From Flavobacteriales bacterium (lineage in GTDB: Bacteria; Bacteroidota; Bacteroidia; Flavobacteriales_D; Parvicellaceae), in assembly GCA_025210295.1 (NCBI GenBank), contig JAOASC010000046.1:124001-188000 (forward strand): a stretch of DNA of 64,000 bases. Reading direction: 5' to 3'. A program made the position numbers and the translations under genes. Shown here piece by piece: positions 25,267-32,008 of this stretch. Positions within the stretch are counted from its first letter, which is position 1. Every line of letters begins with the position of its first letter. Below the pieces are notes generated by a model, which was not told the origin of the DNA, did no database searches, and saw only the letters and a program-made list of their open reading frames with translations.

Positions 25267-27978
25267 TTATTGAAGATAGTTTTTATTGAAGAATGTCACG
25301 TATTCTTCAATATTTTTCTCTACATATAATGAAGAGAAATTTGTTTCAGTGATGATAAAGAAGTCAAACGATTGGTTATAATCTTTGACTTGTTTTTTGT
25401 TCACCTTAAAAGCTACGTAATAATCCATTGCATCTTCTTTATCTTTGAAAGATCTCGTGACAACAACTTGTGTATCTTGATCTACGAAACTACTTTTAAC
25501 TGATAAGTTTTTAGTTGAAAAGGATGCTTTATTAAAATCAGACACTTTTGCTTTTGCTTTATTAATACTTCCTTTATTGTTTGGAAACACTAATACAAAA
25601 AAGTGAGTTGCATCAGTAGCATAGACATAGGTACTTTTCCCAGCTTGAGCATCTGAAACAGATTGAACATTTCTTAATTTATCTAATAGTGCCTTAGCTG
25701 GTTCATACACCTCATCTCCTTTACAATGTTGAACTACGTCACTTAACGCATTTTCTAAAGGTCTCAAACTATCTGAATTAGCATACTTTTGACCAACTGC
25801 AACCGCCTTTAAATAATAGTACTTACATTTATAAACATTCTCCTTTTCTGACTGAATGACCTTATTACTTAATTCGATGACCTTATCATATTGTTTTTGT
25901 GTATAGTAGCTATAGGTCGTTTTATAATCTTCAGCATTTTTTGACCCAGCCAATTCAGCTTTCTGCTTGTAATTTGGATCTTTTATAATCTTAGCGTATT
26001 CAGAGTTAGGATAATCATTTAGTATAGTTTGCTTATACTTTTTCATTTCCTCTCCATTCGTCATTAAATAAAGTTGATATAATCCAGCTATTGCTTTTTC
26101 ATTGGGTAAAAACCTACGAGATAATGCTTCAAAACTCTTTTTAGCTTCAACTTGATTATCCAGCTTAGTTTTATAAACTTCACCACACTTATACAACGAA
26201 TTCATGACATCTTGATCAATTTGAGCCAATTTATTATTATCATTACAAGGCAATGTTTTTAGGTAATAATCGACAGTAAATTCCTCTGACTCTTCGTTCT
26301 TTTCTTCTTCCCCTCCATCAAAATCTAGAGAACTCTTATCAGATCTTCTCCAGTTGTCTTCCAGTTTTCGGTCTCCCCAAAGTGATTTAAAATCATTGAA
26401 GCCTATTTTTTTCAGATTTGCGTCAAATGCCCAAAAGGTTCCAGAAGGTGTCCCAGTATTTGATGGTGCTGTTGCATTAGCATTTTGCATTGCCAATAGT
26501 CTTCTGCGCTCATCTTCAGCTTCTTTCTCCAACTTTTTTTGCTCAATAATATCATCTATTTTAGACAAAAGCTCTTTGTCTGACAACTTACACAAACTCG
26601 TTAAACTATCTCCTTTTTGAACTATATTAAGATTTTCAACTAACTCAGATAAACTCTTATTGGTTTCTGAAATACTTTCGTACTCAAAATGATCTTTCGG
26701 TAAAACGGCCATTGTACTATCATAGTACTGTTGTGCTTTTGTATAGTTTTTTTCAATATAATACAACTTACCTAACCTTAAAAAAGATTTACTCTTTTGC
26801 ACTTTATTGGCCTTACTAACCATTACCGACTGTTCTAAATAAGCAATTCCCTCTGGCCTATTCCCCGCTCTTAGTTCTATATCTCCTAAAGCATAATAGA
26901 TTTGATCATGATAATCTATATTTTTATCATCCTTTAGCATTTTTAATAATTGAGCTTTAATGCTTTTACTATCCCCACCACTGTATGCCAAAGCTCTATT
27001 TATTTTAGCTTGAAAAGCCATATCATAAACGGGATTTCTTTTTACAACTTCTGCATAAAGTTCAGAAGCTCCTTCCCCTCCTACTTCTTGAAGCAACTGA
27101 GCTAAAATAAACAGTTGACGAGTTTTAAACTTCCTTTTCTTTGTGACCTCAATTGAAGCTCGTAAAGCCTCTTCTGCTTCTTTATATTGCTTTTGACGTA
27201 AATATAAATCTGCTACAACAGGCAATAAATCTTGTTCAAACTTTTTGGGTAATGCAGGAATTTCATCCGTTGGCCCTTCCTTTTTCTTTGACTTTGACTT
27301 TGATTTTTTTCTTTTTCTAGAACGACTTGAGCTTCTTTTTTTAGCTTTTTCTTTTGCTTCTTTGGCTGCCTTTTCTGCATCCTCTTTTTGCTCTTTTAGT
27401 TCTTCTTTAACATTTTGTAATTCATCTAACACTTCCTTAGCCTCATCAAATTGCTCTAATTCGATTAATGTTTTCGCTCTCCATAACTTTGCGGTATGAG
27501 AGATAGAAGCTGTTTTATATTGCTTTTCAATAAAAGAAAACTTTTCTATAGCTCCTTCAAAATCACGTTTATAAAATTGAGCCTGACCGATTACTAACCA
27601 GTTATCATCAATCCATTTACACCATTCAACATTTTTAAACTGCCCAACTTTTTGTTTAGGCATACTGTTACGGGCAATAACCGTTTCGCACTTACTAACA
27701 GCAGTATCCATTGGAGAATAAAATGCTTTTGACTCTTCATCATTTGCATAAATAAACAATGGTATAATTTCAGCATAATTTTCCTGACGATTCAGCTCAA
27801 AATCGGTCATTGTTTCTTTAATGATCTCTCCAGCATTAAAATAGCCATTGTAATGCGCTGTGGTATTGTGATAGGTTCTATTAATCCACGCGTCTTTCTC
27901 TGTAGAACACGATTGAACAACAGCAAAAAACAGTATAAAAACTGCTATAAAATGGTGATATTTAGTTTTTGTTTTCAA
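25267..27978 (-). CDS. sprE: T9SS/gliding lipoprotein SprE (PorW) with TPR repeats
   Basis: 903 residues, TTG start; no nearer ATG would keep the lipoprotein signal (FFAVVQSC, lipobox cysteine 24). Right after it comes AWINRTYHNTTAHYNGYFNAGE, diagnostic of SprE/PorW. TPR-like helices run through the protein, interrupted by a very basic Lys/Arg/Ser stretch (about 207-235) and an acidic one (about 555-565). PorW/SprE is an outer-membrane lipoprotein required for type IX secretion, linking the PorKN ring to the translocon. Length fits (870-910). A TATATTCG near-match to a -7 box lies just upstream. Confidence 0.92.
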   Translation of the reverse strand: MKTKTKYHHFIAVFILFFAVVQSCSTEKDAWINRTYHNTTAHYNGYFNAGEIIKETMTDFELNRQENYAEIIPLFIYANDEESKAFYSPMDTAVSKCETVIARNSMPKQKVGQFKNVEWCKWIDDNWLVIGQAQFYKRDFEGAIEKFSFIEKQYKTASISHTAKLWRAKTLIELEQFDEAKEVLDELQNVKEELKEQKEDAEKAAKEAKEKAKKRSSSRSRKRKKSKSKSKKKEGPTDEIPALPKKFEQDLLPVVADLYLRQKQYKEAEEALRASIEVTKKRKFKTRQLFILAQLLQEVGGEGASELYAEVVKRNPVYDMAFQAKINRALAYSGGDSKSIKAQLLKMLKDDKNIDYHDQIYYALGDIELRAGNRPEGIAYLEQSVMVSKANKVQKSKSFLRLGKLYYIEKNYTKAQQYYDSTMAVLPKDHFEYESISETNKSLSELVENLNIVQKGDSLTSLCKLSDKELLSKIDDIIEQKKLEKEAEDERRRLLAMQNANATAPSNTGTPSGTFWAFDANLKKIGFNDFKSLWGDRKLEDNWRRSDKSSLDFDGGEEEKNEESEEFTVDYYLKTLPCNDNNKLAQIDQDVMNSLYKCGEVYKTKLDNQVEAKKSFEALSRRFLPNEKAIAGLYQLYLMTNGEEMKKYKQTILNDYPNSEYAKIIKDPNYKQKAELAGSKNAEDYKTTYSYYTQKQYDKVIELSNKVIQSEKENVYKCKYYYLKAVAVGQKYANSDSLRPLENALSDVVQHCKGDEVYEPAKALLDKLRNVQSVSDAQAGKSTYVYATDATHFFVLVFPNNKGSINKAKAKVSDFNKASFSTKNLSVKSSFVDQDTQVVVTRSFKDKEDAMDYYVAFKVNKKQVKDYNQSFDFFIITETNFSSLYVEKNIEEYVTFFNKNYLQ

Positions 27979-28028: not shown

Positions 28029-28136
28029 CATTTATTTTATTTCTAGTACATTTTTTTATGCCTACAACTCAATAAGTGATGTTAAATTCTGTTATTTAAA
28101 TTATTTTCTGCTCTTTTTTTTAGCATATTTGTATTG

Positions 28137-29039
28137 ATGGCAAAATCAAACAAGCAAAATAAAAACGAAGACATTAGTTTCTTGGATCGAATCAGAAAAA
28201 AAGATCGACTTGTAGTCGTGGATTTAGACACCTATGAAGAAATTCGTCACTTCAATTTTTCTGCATTAAGCATCATCATCTACTCCCTCTTCTTGGCTTT
28301 TATTATTGTGCTTATCACTTGGCTTTTGATTGCCCTTACCCCTATTCGCCAAACGATTCCTGGCTATCCTAACATCAGTCAGCAAAAAGAACTCTCATAC
28401 AAGAATAAAAAAAATGAAGAATGGCTGGCCGCTCAACAAAAAAAACTTAACCAAGAACACATCTATTATAAGAATTTACACACCATACTTTCTGATAGCA
28501 TTGTAAAAAATACGGTTAAAGAAAATGCGGATAGCACAGCGACCGAGATTCAACTACAAAACTTTGAAATATCTAAAAGAGACTCGATTTTGAGACAAAA
28601 AATAGATGAAAAAGAAAAATACCTTATCAAAGCCAATAATGCCAATCAAAATCATAAAAATGACTTAAATGGGGTGTTGTTTTTCCCGCCACTTAACGGA
28701 ACCATTTCCGACAGTTTAAATACCAAAATTGGTCACTATGGTGTTGATATTATAGCTCCTAAAGATGAACCCGTGAAATCGACATTGAATGGAACAATTA
28801 TTTTTGCTGATTGGACGCCAGATAATGGAAACGTAATTCATGTCCAGCATGCCCATAACTTGATATCTGTATATAAACACAACGCTGTATTACTAAAAAA
28901 AGTTGGAGATTATGTAAAAACAGGCGAACCAATAGCCATTATTGGAAATTCAGGTAAACTCTCTAGTGGTCCTCACTTACATTTTGAGCTTTGGCATAAA
29001 GGAATTGTTTTAAACCCAGTCAACTACATAATATTCTGA
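28137..29039 (+). CDS. M23 family metallopeptidase (LytM/murein endopeptidase type)
   Basis: 300 residues from the ATG at 28137 (a TTG directly before it is in frame but unnecessary). One membrane helix lies near residues 45-70, followed by a coiled-coil-like segment and a C-terminal M23 domain. The zinc ligands are seen as HYGVD (H200, D204) and HLH (H280, H282). Such proteins cut peptidoglycan cross-links or act as degenerate activators; with all ligands present this one should be active. It is divergent from sprE. The box CATATTTG just upstream is one base off a -7 element. Confidence 0.9.
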   Translation: MAKSNKQNKNEDISFLDRIRKKDRLVVVDLDTYEEIRHFNFSALSIIIYSLFLAFIIVLITWLLIALTPIRQTIPGYPNISQQKELSYKNKKNEEWLAAQQKKLNQEHIYYKNLHTILSDSIVKNTVKENADSTATEIQLQNFEISKRDSILRQKIDEKEKYLIKANNANQNHKNDLNGVLFFPPLNGTISDSLNTKIGHYGVDIIAPKDEPVKSTLNGTIIFADWTPDNGNVIHVQHAHNLISVYKHNAVLLKKVGDYVKTGEPIAIIGNSGKLSSGPHLHFELWHKGIVLNPVNYIIF

Positions 29040-29068: not shown

Positions 29069-29076
29069 TATTTTTG
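29069..29076 (+). promoter_or_regulatory. -7 box before the FGE-fold/Cys-repeat operon
   Basis: TATTTTTG lies 26 bases before the ATG at 29103 and would give a leader of about 20 bases. The upstream region is T-rich without a clear TTTG. Confidence 0.45.
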
Positions 29077-29102: not shown

Positions 29103-30632
29103 ATGAAAAAACACACCTTATCTTTACTTGGGCTTTTTACATTATTCATCCAGATATGTTTTGCAAATAATGTAACCGTAGACAACGTCAGTATTACTGG
29201 ACAAAATTCTGTCAGCAATTATAAATTTGTTGAATTTGATTTAAGTTGGGAAAATTCTTGGAGAACATCAGCTGGTCCAAGTAACTGGGATGCCGTTTGG
29301 GTTTTCTGTAAATATAGAGCAACTTCTTCTTCAACTTGGAGCCATGCAACGCTAAACACTACTGCTGGAAATCACACTGCTCCATCTGGATCTACCATTA
29401 CTCCTTCACCTGATGGTATGGGAACTTTTATCTATCAAAATGCTGATGGTGCTGGAAATGTTGATTTTGACAATGTACAATTAAGATGGGAATATGGTAC
29501 TGATGGTTTATTAGACAATGATAGTGTAGAAATTTGCGTATTCGCCATCGAAATGGTGTATATTCCAACAGCTGCTTTTACTTTGGGGGATGGAAATTCA
29601 ATTTCTTTAGAAAGTACAGGAGCTTTTCATAGCCCATACAACACTTCTAATCCCGTAACGATTTCAACGACTTTAGTTTCTGATGTCCATACTGATGCTG
29701 GATATGATGACAGTCAACTAACAGGTAATGCCACATTGGGGATCGGAATTGATGGCGATGGAGGAATAGACACTAATGATGACGGCACAATAGATAATAC
29801 GAGTTTTCCTACAGGCTATAATGCGTTCTATATCATGAAGCATGAATTGAGCCAAGGACAATATGCTAGCTTTTTAAATAAACTAACTACAGCTCAAGAT
29901 GCTAGCCGTTTTTACAATACTACCAGCTACAGACAAACAGTATCAGGTACACCAGGTGGACGTGTTGCTAGTGCCCCAAACCGAGCTATGAACTACACAG
30001 ATTGGCCAGATTTAGCAGCTTATGCTGATTGGGCAGGACTTAGACCAATGACAGAGTTAGAATTCGAAAAAGCTGCCAGAGGAACAGAATCTAGTGTTAC
30101 TGGTGAATATGCATGGGGAAACACTTCTTTAACAACTTCTATTTATACATTCTTATATGATGGAGCAGCAAACTCTTCTGTTTCTAACATTTCAACTGGT
30201 ATTGGTAATGCTCAATATGCAACGACCGACAATAATGCTGTAGGACCTTTAAGATGTGGAATTTTTGCTGCAAGTAGCCCTAACCACACAAGAATAGAAA
30301 CAGGAAGTAGCTATTATGGAGTCATGGAATTATCAGGAAACGTAATGGAATACTGTGTTACATTAGGACGCGTTGGAGGAAGAAGTTACACTGGAAATCA
30401 TGGAGATGGTGTATTGAGTTCAAACGGTTTTGCTAATGAAACGACTTGGCCAGGATTAAACTCAGGTGTTGTAAGTCATACCACTGCTAGTTATGGTTTT
30501 GGATTAAGAGGAGGATCATTTAACGTTGCGAATACTGCAATGCCTATATCTTATAGAGGATATATGAATACCTCATATTCTAATACCAATTCATATTATA
30601 CAGGTATTCGATTAGTAAGAACTGCGCCATAA
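29103..30632 (+). CDS. Secreted FGE-sulfatase-fold (SUMF1/GldK-like) protein
   Basis: 509 residues with a signal peptide (1-about 20). An N-terminal beta-sandwich (about 22-150) has the pattern VTVDNVSITGQN followed by FDLSWENSW. From about 150 a SUMF1/FGE domain follows: EMVYIPTAAFTLGDG, MKHELSQGQYASFLN, AAYADWAGLRPMTELEFEKAARG, SGNVMEYC, LRGGSF. The segment after RGGSF has no cysteine pair, so the copper/cysteine chemistry of true formylglycine enzymes is not expected. Similar non-catalytic folds occur in GldJ/GldK. It is followed 8 bases later by a cysteine-repeat T9SS cargo, its likely partner. Confidence 0.82.
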   Translation: MKKHTLSLLGLFTLFIQICFANNVTVDNVSITGQNSVSNYKFVEFDLSWENSWRTSAGPSNWDAVWVFCKYRATSSSTWSHATLNTTAGNHTAPSGSTITPSPDGMGTFIYQNADGAGNVDFDNVQLRWEYGTDGLLDNDSVEICVFAIEMVYIPTAAFTLGDGNSISLESTGAFHSPYNTSNPVTISTTLVSDVHTDAGYDDSQLTGNATLGIGIDGDGGIDTNDDGTIDNTSFPTGYNAFYIMKHELSQGQYASFLNKLTTAQDASRFYNTTSYRQTVSGTPGGRVASAPNRAMNYTDWPDLAAYADWAGLRPMTELEFEKAARGTESSVTGEYAWGNTSLTTSIYTFLYDGAANSSVSNISTGIGNAQYATTDNNAVGPLRCGIFAASSPNHTRIETGSSYYGVMELSGNVMEYCVTLGRVGGRSYTGNHGDGVLSSNGFANETTWPGLNSGVVSHTTASYGFGLRGGSFNVANTAMPISYRGYMNTSYSNTNSYYTGIRLVRTAP

Positions 30633-30640
30633 TAAGCTCT

Positions 30641-32008
30641 GTGATTAGACTTCTATACCATTTCTTATTCATTAGCTTATTCATTGTAATAAGTGCTTCT
30701 ACTTTGTGGAGTCAATCTCCTATGTTTTATGGAGGAGGTGGCAGCTTTTATCCTAGTAATTGCTATGAGGAAAACACCAGTACTACTTACAACATGTACT
30801 CAGGAGGCTGGGGAAACTACACTTCAAATTTAGCTTGTCATGAACAAACTTCTGCCGAAGGTAATAGGATATACTATGGTGGTGCTGGAGCTGCTCAACC
30901 AAGCTATTGTTTTCTAGAAAACGCAGCTACTCATAACGATCTTTTTTATGGTGGGGATGGAAACTTTTCGAACTTATCTTGTTATCATCAACCTGGACAA
31001 AACGCCGCTACAATGTTCTACGGAGGATCGAGCTCTGCCATAGCTTTTTACTGCTATGAACAAAATAACACAATCAGTAACACCATGTTTATGGGAGCGA
31101 ATGGCTCTAACATATATGTTAATTGTTATGAAGAAGGAATCACTCCTTTTTATAGTATGTATACAGGTGGAGATAGCTACAACAGCAATGTATTGTGTTA
31201 TGAAGAAACAGATATTGTCAACAACTCTTTTTACAAAGGAGGATCAGGAGATGGCTTTGATGTTAATTGCAGGATTCAAGATCAAGCCTTAGGAAGATTT
31301 CTTTTTCAGGGTGGTAATGCTGATGGTTACAGCGTTAATTGTTTTACTCAAAACAACGCCAATGTTATTGGAATGTTTAAAGGAGGGGCAGGAACATCAA
31401 TAAACTTAAGGTGTTTCCAACAGTTAGACTACTTGATTGTACCTTTGCCTGTTGAAATTTTAGATTTCTATGCTACTAAGACTAAAAAAGAAGTTCTGTT
31501 AAATTGGACAACTTCTTCTGAAATTAATTCTTCTCATTTTGAGATAGAAAGAGCTGGTAATGATTTAGTCTTCGACTTTTTAGAGGAGACTTCTGCCGCT
31601 GGGAATAGTAGCGAAGAACTCCATTATTCTTTAACAGATTTCAATCCAATTAAAGGGCTTTCCTATTATCGCTTAAAACAAGTTGATTTAGATGGTAGTT
31701 TTGTATACAGTAAAATTATTGCTGTCAATTTTAAACATAAGAAAGCTGCTCCATCTTTGATTATTTATCCTAACCCAGCTGAAACAAAAACAACAATCCA
31801 ATTCAACAGTTTTGATGATGAATTAATTGAACTTTCTGTTTATGATATTTCTGGACTAACTCTTGTTAAGCAGCAAATCAACACTGCTATAGATGGAGCT
31901 ATTTATGAATTCATCTTTTCTAATCGATTAATCCCTGGAACTTATATTATCTCGGCAAGAGGTGTTAACACTCAAACGATCATCAATCAGAAACTCATAA
32001 TTCATTAA
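30641..32008 (+). CDS. T9SS type A cargo with ten 24-residue cysteine repeats (GTG start)
   Basis: 455 residues, GTG start 8 bases after the FGE-fold gene. After a signal peptide (about 1-25) ten repeats of almost exactly 24 residues fill 28-268, one of them 25 long. Each has the plan [MLIF][FY]xG[GA], then C-x-x-[EQ], with a single cysteine per repeat (for example NCYEE, ACHEQ, YCFLE, NCFTQ). A linker VPLPVEILDFYA leads to a fibronectin-like domain, then the type A sorting domain (about 375-455, IIYPNPAETKTTIQF) ending with basic residues. The repeats likely form an extended beta-rod on the cell surface. No function is known to me. Confidence 0.85.
   Translation: MIRLLYHFLFISLFIVISASTLWSQSPMFYGGGGSFYPSNCYEENTSTTYNMYSGGWGNYTSNLACHEQTSAEGNRIYYGGAGAAQPSYCFLENAATHNDLFYGGDGNFSNLSCYHQPGQNAATMFYGGSSSAIAFYCYEQNNTISNTMFMGANGSNIYVNCYEEGITPFYSMYTGGDSYNSNVLCYEETDIVNNSFYKGGSGDGFDVNCRIQDQALGRFLFQGGNADGYSVNCFTQNNANVIGMFKGGAGTSINLRCFQQLDYLIVPLPVEILDFYATKTKKEVLLNWTTSSEINSSHFEIERAGNDLVFDFLEETSAAGNSSEELHYSLTDFNPIKGLSYYRLKQVDLDGSFVYSKIIAVNFKHKKAAPSLIIYPNPAETKTTIQFNSFDDELIELSVYDISGLTLVKQQINTAIDGAIYEFIFSNRLIPGTYIISARGVNTQTIINQKLIIH

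What the first reader, a model, noticed from the sequence alone, without database searches (positions are those of the whole stretch)
29103..32008. FGE-fold protein paired with a T9SS cargo built of ten 24-residue single-cysteine repeats
Two secreted proteins are encoded 8 bases apart behind one -7 box. The second has ten repeats of almost exactly 24 residues, each with one cysteine in a C-x-x-[EQ] context, then a T9SS type A tail. The first has a SUMF1/FGE fold, a family that binds or oxidises cysteine-bearing substrates, but its usual cysteine pair after RGGS is absent. A dedicated partner that binds, folds or modifies the regular cysteine array would be a new use of the fold; the cysteines might also cross-link rods between molecules. 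The pairing and repeats are seen; the interaction is inference.
Basis: partly seen in the sequence, partly recalled or inferred. Interest (0 to 1): 0.68.

Follow-up and report, generated by a model that had tools for sequence, protein, structure and literature searches.

The report
FGE-fold binder with GG-motif secreted partner
Two neighbouring secreted proteins, one with a dead-enzyme fold and one built of short repeats, turn out to be a conserved pair in two bacterial phyla, tied together by a glycine-rich motif rather than by the cysteines first noticed, and most likely form a docking system that displays a binding protein outside the cell.

Summary
In detail: an FGE-fold secreted protein (29103-30632) and, 8 bases on, a T9SS cargo (30641-32008) whose ten cysteines all lie 24-25 residues apart. 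The pairing is not local. Relatives of this FGE-fold protein occur in 27 of 396 sampled genomes of the phylum and in Omnitrophota; in 16 of 26 assessable genomes the next gene encodes a secreted protein with a [FY]-x-GG-x-x-[DNSG]-G motif (variant GGxGRGD), usually at the mature N-terminus, in one copy to dozens. Two motif patterns run blind over those genomes found 15 genuine secreted N-termini, all 15 directly downstream of an FGE-family gene. The GG motif, not cysteine, is what is conserved: about two thirds of partners lack cysteine in the motif region, and FGE cysteines do not track partner cysteines. No relative has the catalytic cysteine pair. In three Omnitrophota loci the relative is the target of a diversity-generating retroelement (RT, Avd, adenine-specific template mismatches) that rewrites the segment corresponding to the FGE active site. 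I therefore read the first protein as a non-catalytic binding protein and the second as its GG-motif dock and T9SS carrier. Pairing and loss of catalysis are shown; docking is inferred. No earlier description was found.

The parts
29069..29076 (+). -7-like box (TATTTTTG) of the Bacteroidota type, the only one upstream of the pair
   Evidence: weak, the motif is common in the window
29103..30632 (+). FGE-fold secreted protein, 509 aa, signal peptide residues 1-21, no lipobox, no T9SS tail
   Evidence: single copy in the genome
29175..29582 (+). N-terminal beta domain (residues 25-160) with near-invariant F45 W49 W53 N61 D63 W66 F68 K70 W79 H81 G107 E150; no Pfam family; proposed GG-motif docking domain (inferred)
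   Evidence: (block pLDDT mostly 90-98)
29820..30620 (+). FGE/SUMF1-like domain (residues 240-506)
   Evidence: PF03781 3.1e-16
30507..30626 (+). C-terminal segment R469GG...R485...G501xR503 (residues 469-508): the most variable stretch inside an invariant frame; equivalent to the FGE active site and to the variable region rewritten by retroelements in relatives
30641..32008 (+). GG-motif partner: secreted T9SS cargo of 455 aa, GTG start, signal peptide residues 1-25
30719..31432 (+). ten 24-residue repeats [FY]-x-GG-x(8)-C-x-x-[EQ] (residues 27-264); proposed array of docking sites
   Evidence: low-confidence model gives two short strands per unit
31763..32002 (+). T9SS type A sorting domain (residues 375-454)
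   Evidence: PF18962 and TIGR04183

Best explanation
The pair is a two-part display module. The first gene encodes a catalytically dead FGE-fold (C-type-lectin-type) binding protein with its own conserved N-terminal beta domain and no surface anchor. The second encodes its carrier: a T9SS cargo with a docking motif, [FY]-x-GG-x-x-[DNSG]-G, here repeated ten times as 24-residue units. The FGE-fold protein, made in the periplasm from the same operon, binds the GG units (most likely through the invariant N-terminal domain), is taken to the cell surface with the cargo, and presents its variable C-terminal face to an outside ligand; ten units would carry up to ten copies. SHOWN: conserved gene pair, GG motif shared by partners in two phyla, reverse association, absence of the catalytic cysteines, retroelement diversification of that face in three relatives, secretion signals. 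INFERRED: physical docking, which domain docks, piggy-back export, stoichiometry, ligand. The cysteines are a lineage-specific feature of the repeat, perhaps buried side chains of the second strand or disulfides stiffening the rod.
For: Forward test: FGE-family profile hits 27 of 396 genomes of the phylum; in 16 of 26 assessable genomes a GG-motif secreted protein follows, against 5 of 352 other ORFs in the same loci with a motif-like string near the start. Reverse test: pattern AQ[YF]xGGxxDG gave 11 hits, of which 5 are true post-signal-peptide N-termini and all 5 follow an FGE gene; the rest are wrong-frame or inside unrelated proteins. Pattern Q[YF]xGGxGRGD gave 11 hits, of which 10 are true and all 10 follow an FGE gene. 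Genomes: 8 of 27 FGE-positive against 0 of 369, Fisher p 1.6e-10. Omnitrophota loci L020, L021, L032 and L017 have the pair too. Retroelement targets: L013 14/14, L016 18/18, L017 20/21 template mismatches at adenines, with RT (RVT_1 1e-20 or better for L013 and L016) and bAvd (3e-18 or better for L013 and L017); L017 combines variable FGE protein and GG neighbour. On the tree these targets nest in the part that holds the window protein, where 32 of 40 rows have a GG partner, though the deepest forks are weakly supported. Conservation: N-terminal domain and FGE core invariant, residues 474-500 among the least conserved. Precedents: PorK uses a cysteine-less FGE fold as a docking hub (PMC12421860); TaqVP, TvpA and Mtd are FGE-subtype retroelement binding proteins (PMC6328139).
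Against: No complex was predicted or measured. The retroelement targets L013 and L016 have no GG partner in the stretch seen, so a GG partner is not essential for the FGE protein. A 13-row clade has no GG partner. Neither a template repeat nor a related RT was found in this genome, so the window protein is not being diversified now. No T9SS tail was recognised on the Omnitrophota partner scanned (L020, cut by the contig end), so export by T9SS may not be the common function. Most partners have only one motif, so multivalency is not general.
Confidence: 0.5

Rival explanations
1. The FGE-fold protein is an enzyme of a new chemistry that modifies the GG motif (for example the aromatic residue, the Asp or a Gly) on the partner before export, as FGE acts on a short peptide motif in sulfatases.
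For: FGE recognises a short linear motif; the GG motif is short, linear and at the exposed N-terminus; adjacency is very strict; the partners are otherwise unrelated in architecture, as expected of a substrate tag.
Against: No family member keeps the cysteine pair of FGE; the position equivalent to Cys341 (482) is V, I, L, T or A in all 58 (register set by RGG and R485 from my own knowledge of human FGE). The equivalent segment is the most variable in the family and is retroelement-randomised in relatives.
Confidence: 0.15
2. The FGE-fold protein is a periplasmic chaperone or assembly factor that keeps the GG repeats unfolded or soluble until T9SS export and stays behind in the periplasm.
For: The FGE-fold protein has a signal peptide but no T9SS tail or lipobox; co-transcription; the partner usually has the motif as its first part out of the inner membrane.
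Against: Single-motif partners hardly need a chaperone; diversification of the C-terminal face in relatives points to a ligand outside; Omnitrophota have the pair without a recognised T9SS tail on the partner.
Confidence: 0.2
3. One reading: the partner is defined by its cysteine array, which the FGE-fold protein oxidises, folds or captures through disulfides. A covalent version has a precedent: the FGE-fold protein GldK is disulfide-bonded through Cys343 to the CxC tail of SprF (PMC12635249).
For: All ten repeats here keep the cysteine; cysteine arrays also in L026, L033 and L103/L010; Cys418 of the FGE protein is shared by L010 and L026.
Against: Most partners have no cysteine in the motif region; L033 has a cysteine array but no Cys418; L012, L014 and L015 likewise; no correlation of cysteine content.
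Confidence: 0.1

Closest known systems
PorK/GldK and GldJ of the T9SS and gliding machinery
   Same: FGE fold without the catalytic cysteines, in Bacteroidota, with the old substrate groove used to dock a partner (PMC12421860)
   Different: Here no lipobox and no GldK/GldJ family match; different N-terminal domain; the partner is a variable secreted cargo, not PorN; also present in Omnitrophota
FGE-subtype C-type-lectin proteins diversified by retroelements (Mtd, TvpA, TaqVP)
   Same: FGE-like fold, cysteine pair absent, variable residues on the face equivalent to the FGE active site; three close relatives are such targets
   Different: No template repeat or related RT found for the window copy; has an extra N-terminal domain and a GG-motif partner gene
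Formylglycine-generating enzyme (FGE/SUMF1) and EgtB
   Same: Overall fold; best PDB sequence match to FGE-like chains 5nxl and 6s07 (1e-7) and best fold match EgtB (1.4e-4)
   Different: Catalytic cysteines absent; only weak matches to EgtB-type NCBIfam models, far below cut-off
Cohesin-dockerin scaffoldins of cellulosomes
   Same: Works-like analogy only: repeated docking units on a secreted scaffold, with a separate protein that carries function
   Different: No cohesin or dockerin match in Pfam; docking not demonstrated; scaffold exported by T9SS

Membership tests
FGE-sulfatase fold superfamily (PF03781) | significant match to the fold's profile | tested here: met
   E 3.1e-16, 60.3 bits against a cut-off of 23.3
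Formylglycine-generating enzyme | catalytic cysteine pair in the C-terminal segment | tested here: not met
   no cysteine after RGGSF; no Cys at 482 in 58 relatives
GldK/PorK or GldJ | match to the curated NCBIfam model and lipoprotein signal | tested here: not met
   no such model among hits at E<=1; signal peptide without a recognisable lipobox
Retroelement-diversified binding protein | variable region with near-identical template repeat and RT in the genome | tested here: not met
   not met for the window copy; met for relatives L013 and L016, and for L017 except that its RT was not scanned
T9SS type A cargo (second protein) | signal peptide plus C-terminal type A sorting domain above cut-off | tested here: met
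   TIGR04183 32.8 against 23; PF18962 33.3 against 27
FGE/GG-motif gene pair described here | FGE-family gene followed by a secreted protein with [FY]xGGxx[DNSG]G | tested here: met
   window units such as FYKGGSGDGFDVNC; 8-base gap
Cohesin-dockerin-like display | physical binding of separate protein to each repeat | not testable with these tools
   no complex prediction or binding assay available

The most novel reading that the evidence does not exclude
A scaffoldin-like system outside cellulosomes: tandem GG-motif docking units on T9SS cargo capture an FGE-fold binding protein by its N-terminal domain and display up to dozens of copies on the surface, and in some lineages the binding face is mutated by a retroelement, giving an antibody-like head on an interchangeable multivalent stalk.
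Probability: 0.3. Interest if true: 0.82.

Novelty: new variant of a known kind. Interest (0 to 1): 0.6.

Why it matters
It gives a short, searchable sequence tag (GGxxDG after the signal peptide) that predicts the partner of an FGE-fold protein family spread over two phyla, and links that family to retroelement-diversified binding proteins. What such proteins are attached to on the cell, and how they are presented, is mostly unknown; here the anchor may be the neighbouring gene, so the question becomes a simple binding and localisation experiment. It would also give a role to proteins that are likely to be annotated only as formylglycine-generating enzyme or T9SS sorting domain protein.

Tried and rejected
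Cysteine-centred reading: rejected as the shared principle. Active retroelement in this genome: no template repeat in the window or the genome and no related RT. Search with the whole repeat array inside the family found only the window itself, because arrays diverge fast. A 49-position GG profile (A3) was too insensitive: it missed the window's own array, but its only two hits in 396 genomes both lay next to FGE genes. A3 rows were typed by hand and a few residues differ from the loci; a first trial alignment A2 held one row not taken from data and was not used further. Structure of the repeat array: low confidence (repeat region pLDDT mostly 40-58), so only the two-strands-per-unit hint is taken from it. 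FGE-fold model: pTM 0.84, but the C-terminal face 486-496 is under pLDDT 50, so no active-site geometry is claimed. PDB fold search gave nothing for the N-terminal domain. Reading FGE as sulfatase maturation: no catalytic cysteines. The FGE sweep scored only three candidates per genome, so FGE copies are undercounted (extra ones appeared). Papers: no description of the pairing found.

Full report
WHAT IS THERE. The window lies in contig 46 of a 4.2-Mb draft genome of a Bacteroidota-type bacterium (T9SS genes and tails). At 29103-30632 is a 509-residue secreted protein whose residues 240-506 match the FGE-sulfatase family. Eight bases on, at 30641-32008, is a 455-residue T9SS type A cargo with exactly ten cysteines spaced 25, 24, 24, 24, 24, 24, 24, 24, 24 residues, each as C-x-x-[EQ]; random placement never gave more than 4 of 9 such intervals in 200,000 trials. 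Each repeat also reads [FY]-x-G-G (G-A once) or close to it before the cysteine, the clearest being FYKGGSGDGFDVNC.

THE PAIR IS CONSERVED. A genome-collection scan with the FGE-fold protein gave 24 loci in Bacteroidota, Omnitrophota and a few others. The gene just downstream in many of them is a secreted protein whose mature N-terminus reads [FY]-x-GG-x-x-D-G: FHGGISDGFAMSC (L014), FYFGGDGDGHSKE (L019), IYTGGPDDGF (L020, Omnitrophota), YYGGSGDGYG (L032, Omnitrophota), AQFIGGKADG (L023, 23-residue repeats without cysteine), a 1,908-residue open frame with dozens of 24-residue GG...C repeats (L026), and about a dozen 21-residue YLGGFGDGHTSSSMPIIYKPT-like repeats (L028). In a genome of the same genus the FGE-fold gene is immediately followed by a T9SS protein with a diverged cysteine repeat. 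An even draw of 396 genomes of the phylum contained the FGE family in 27; 16 of 26 assessable ones have the GG partner next door, one more being cut by the contig end. Unit length in arrays runs from 20 to 32 residues, copy number from 1 to dozens, and the rest of the partner varies (T9SS tail alone, laminin-G and cadherin domains in L033, an unnamed domain in Omnitrophota).

REVERSE TEST. Two nucleotide patterns that know nothing of FGE were run over the same 396 genomes. AQ[YF]xGGxxDG: 11 hits; reading the frames leaves five real post-signal-peptide N-termini, all five directly downstream of an FGE-family gene, and six chance hits in wrong frames or in unrelated proteins such as a glucose-6-phosphate-dehydrogenase-like protein. 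Q[YF]xGGxGRGD: 11 hits; ten real, all ten downstream of an FGE-family gene, including three FGE genes that the first sweep had not listed, and one chance hit. Eight of 27 FGE-positive genomes against none of 369 others (p 1.6e-10). These patterns cover only strict forms of the motif; looser forms without an FGE neighbour are not excluded.

CYSTEINE IS NOT THE PRINCIPLE. Of 35 listed neighbour pairs, 11 had any cysteine in the motif region, one of them a spurious match; FGE cysteine count and partner cysteine density are uncorrelated (rho 0.03); Cys418 shows only a weak trend. Cysteine arrays exist in the window, L026, L033 and L010/L103, at different distances from GG, so they look gained more than once (inference).

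THE FGE FOLD IS NOT AN ENZYME OF THE FGE KIND. The family keeps a frame RGG...R485...G501-x-R503 but residues 474-500 are among its most variable parts, and the catalytic positions carry no conserved cysteine. In three Omnitrophota loci this segment has a template copy downstream: all mismatches fall on template adenines (14/14, 18/18) or all but one (20/21), with Avd-like proteins (L013, L017) and reverse transcriptases (L013, L016) named by Pfam. These relatives are 38-45% identical to the window protein and fall in the same part of the tree. One of them, L017, also has a GG protein next door. The window copy has no template or related RT in its genome. So the family is best read as binding proteins on the FGE/C-type-lectin fold, some of them retroelement-diversified, as in TaqVP.

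MECHANISM. A segment that is randomised in relatives is unlikely to recognise a constant motif. The constant part is the N-terminal beta domain (residues 25-160, block pLDDT mostly above 90), which has many near-invariant residues, no Pfam family and no convincing PDB fold match. I therefore propose that this domain docks the GG motif and that the FGE domain points outward. The FGE-fold protein has no T9SS tail or lipobox, so riding on the cargo would explain its route to the surface; the cargo's repeats would set the copy number. Shown: pairing, motif, loss of catalytic residues, diversification in relatives. Inferred: binding, route, stoichiometry, ligand. PorK provides the precedent of a cysteine-less FGE fold as docking hub, GldK-SprF the precedent for a disulfide link that the cysteine rival would need.

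RIVALS. New-chemistry modification of the GG motif; periplasmic chaperone; cysteine capture. Each is testable by mass, localisation and mutated arrays (see next steps).

KNOWN OR NEW. Both halves belong to known kinds (FGE fold; T9SS cargo). The pairing, the GG motif and the link to retroelement targets were not found in the papers searched; the library lacks most subscription papers, so absence is not proof. Verdict: a new variant of a known kind, interest 0.6; 0.82 if the docking array is demonstrated.

Noticed in passing
window 25267-27978 (-): T9SS periplasmic lipoprotein PorW/SprE (NF052312, 1e-157) about 1.1 kb from the pair, on the other strand; an M23 peptidase gene (28134-29039) lies between them.
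   Followed up: partly
L013, L016, L017 (Omnitrophota): Diversity-generating retroelements whose target is an FGE-fold relative; L013 has two targets flanking one RT/Avd set.
   Followed up: yes
L069, L071, L073, L074: Some FGE-family genes of G282 and G131 carry a second FGE-like domain at the C-terminus, mostly with GGxGRGD partners downstream.
   Followed up: no
L084, L096, L097, L098: A subfamily without GG partner sits directly before a threonine-dehydratase-like gene in four genomes.
   Followed up: no
L090, L092: Another subfamily without GG partner is followed by a conserved secreted protein (QQVAD...GPVIFIDEGHFNFHTKEGRYKAF).
   Followed up: no
L034: Four tandem FGE-family genes in a record titled Akkermansia MAG, two of them 82% alike at the 3' end over 156 bases.
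   Followed up: no
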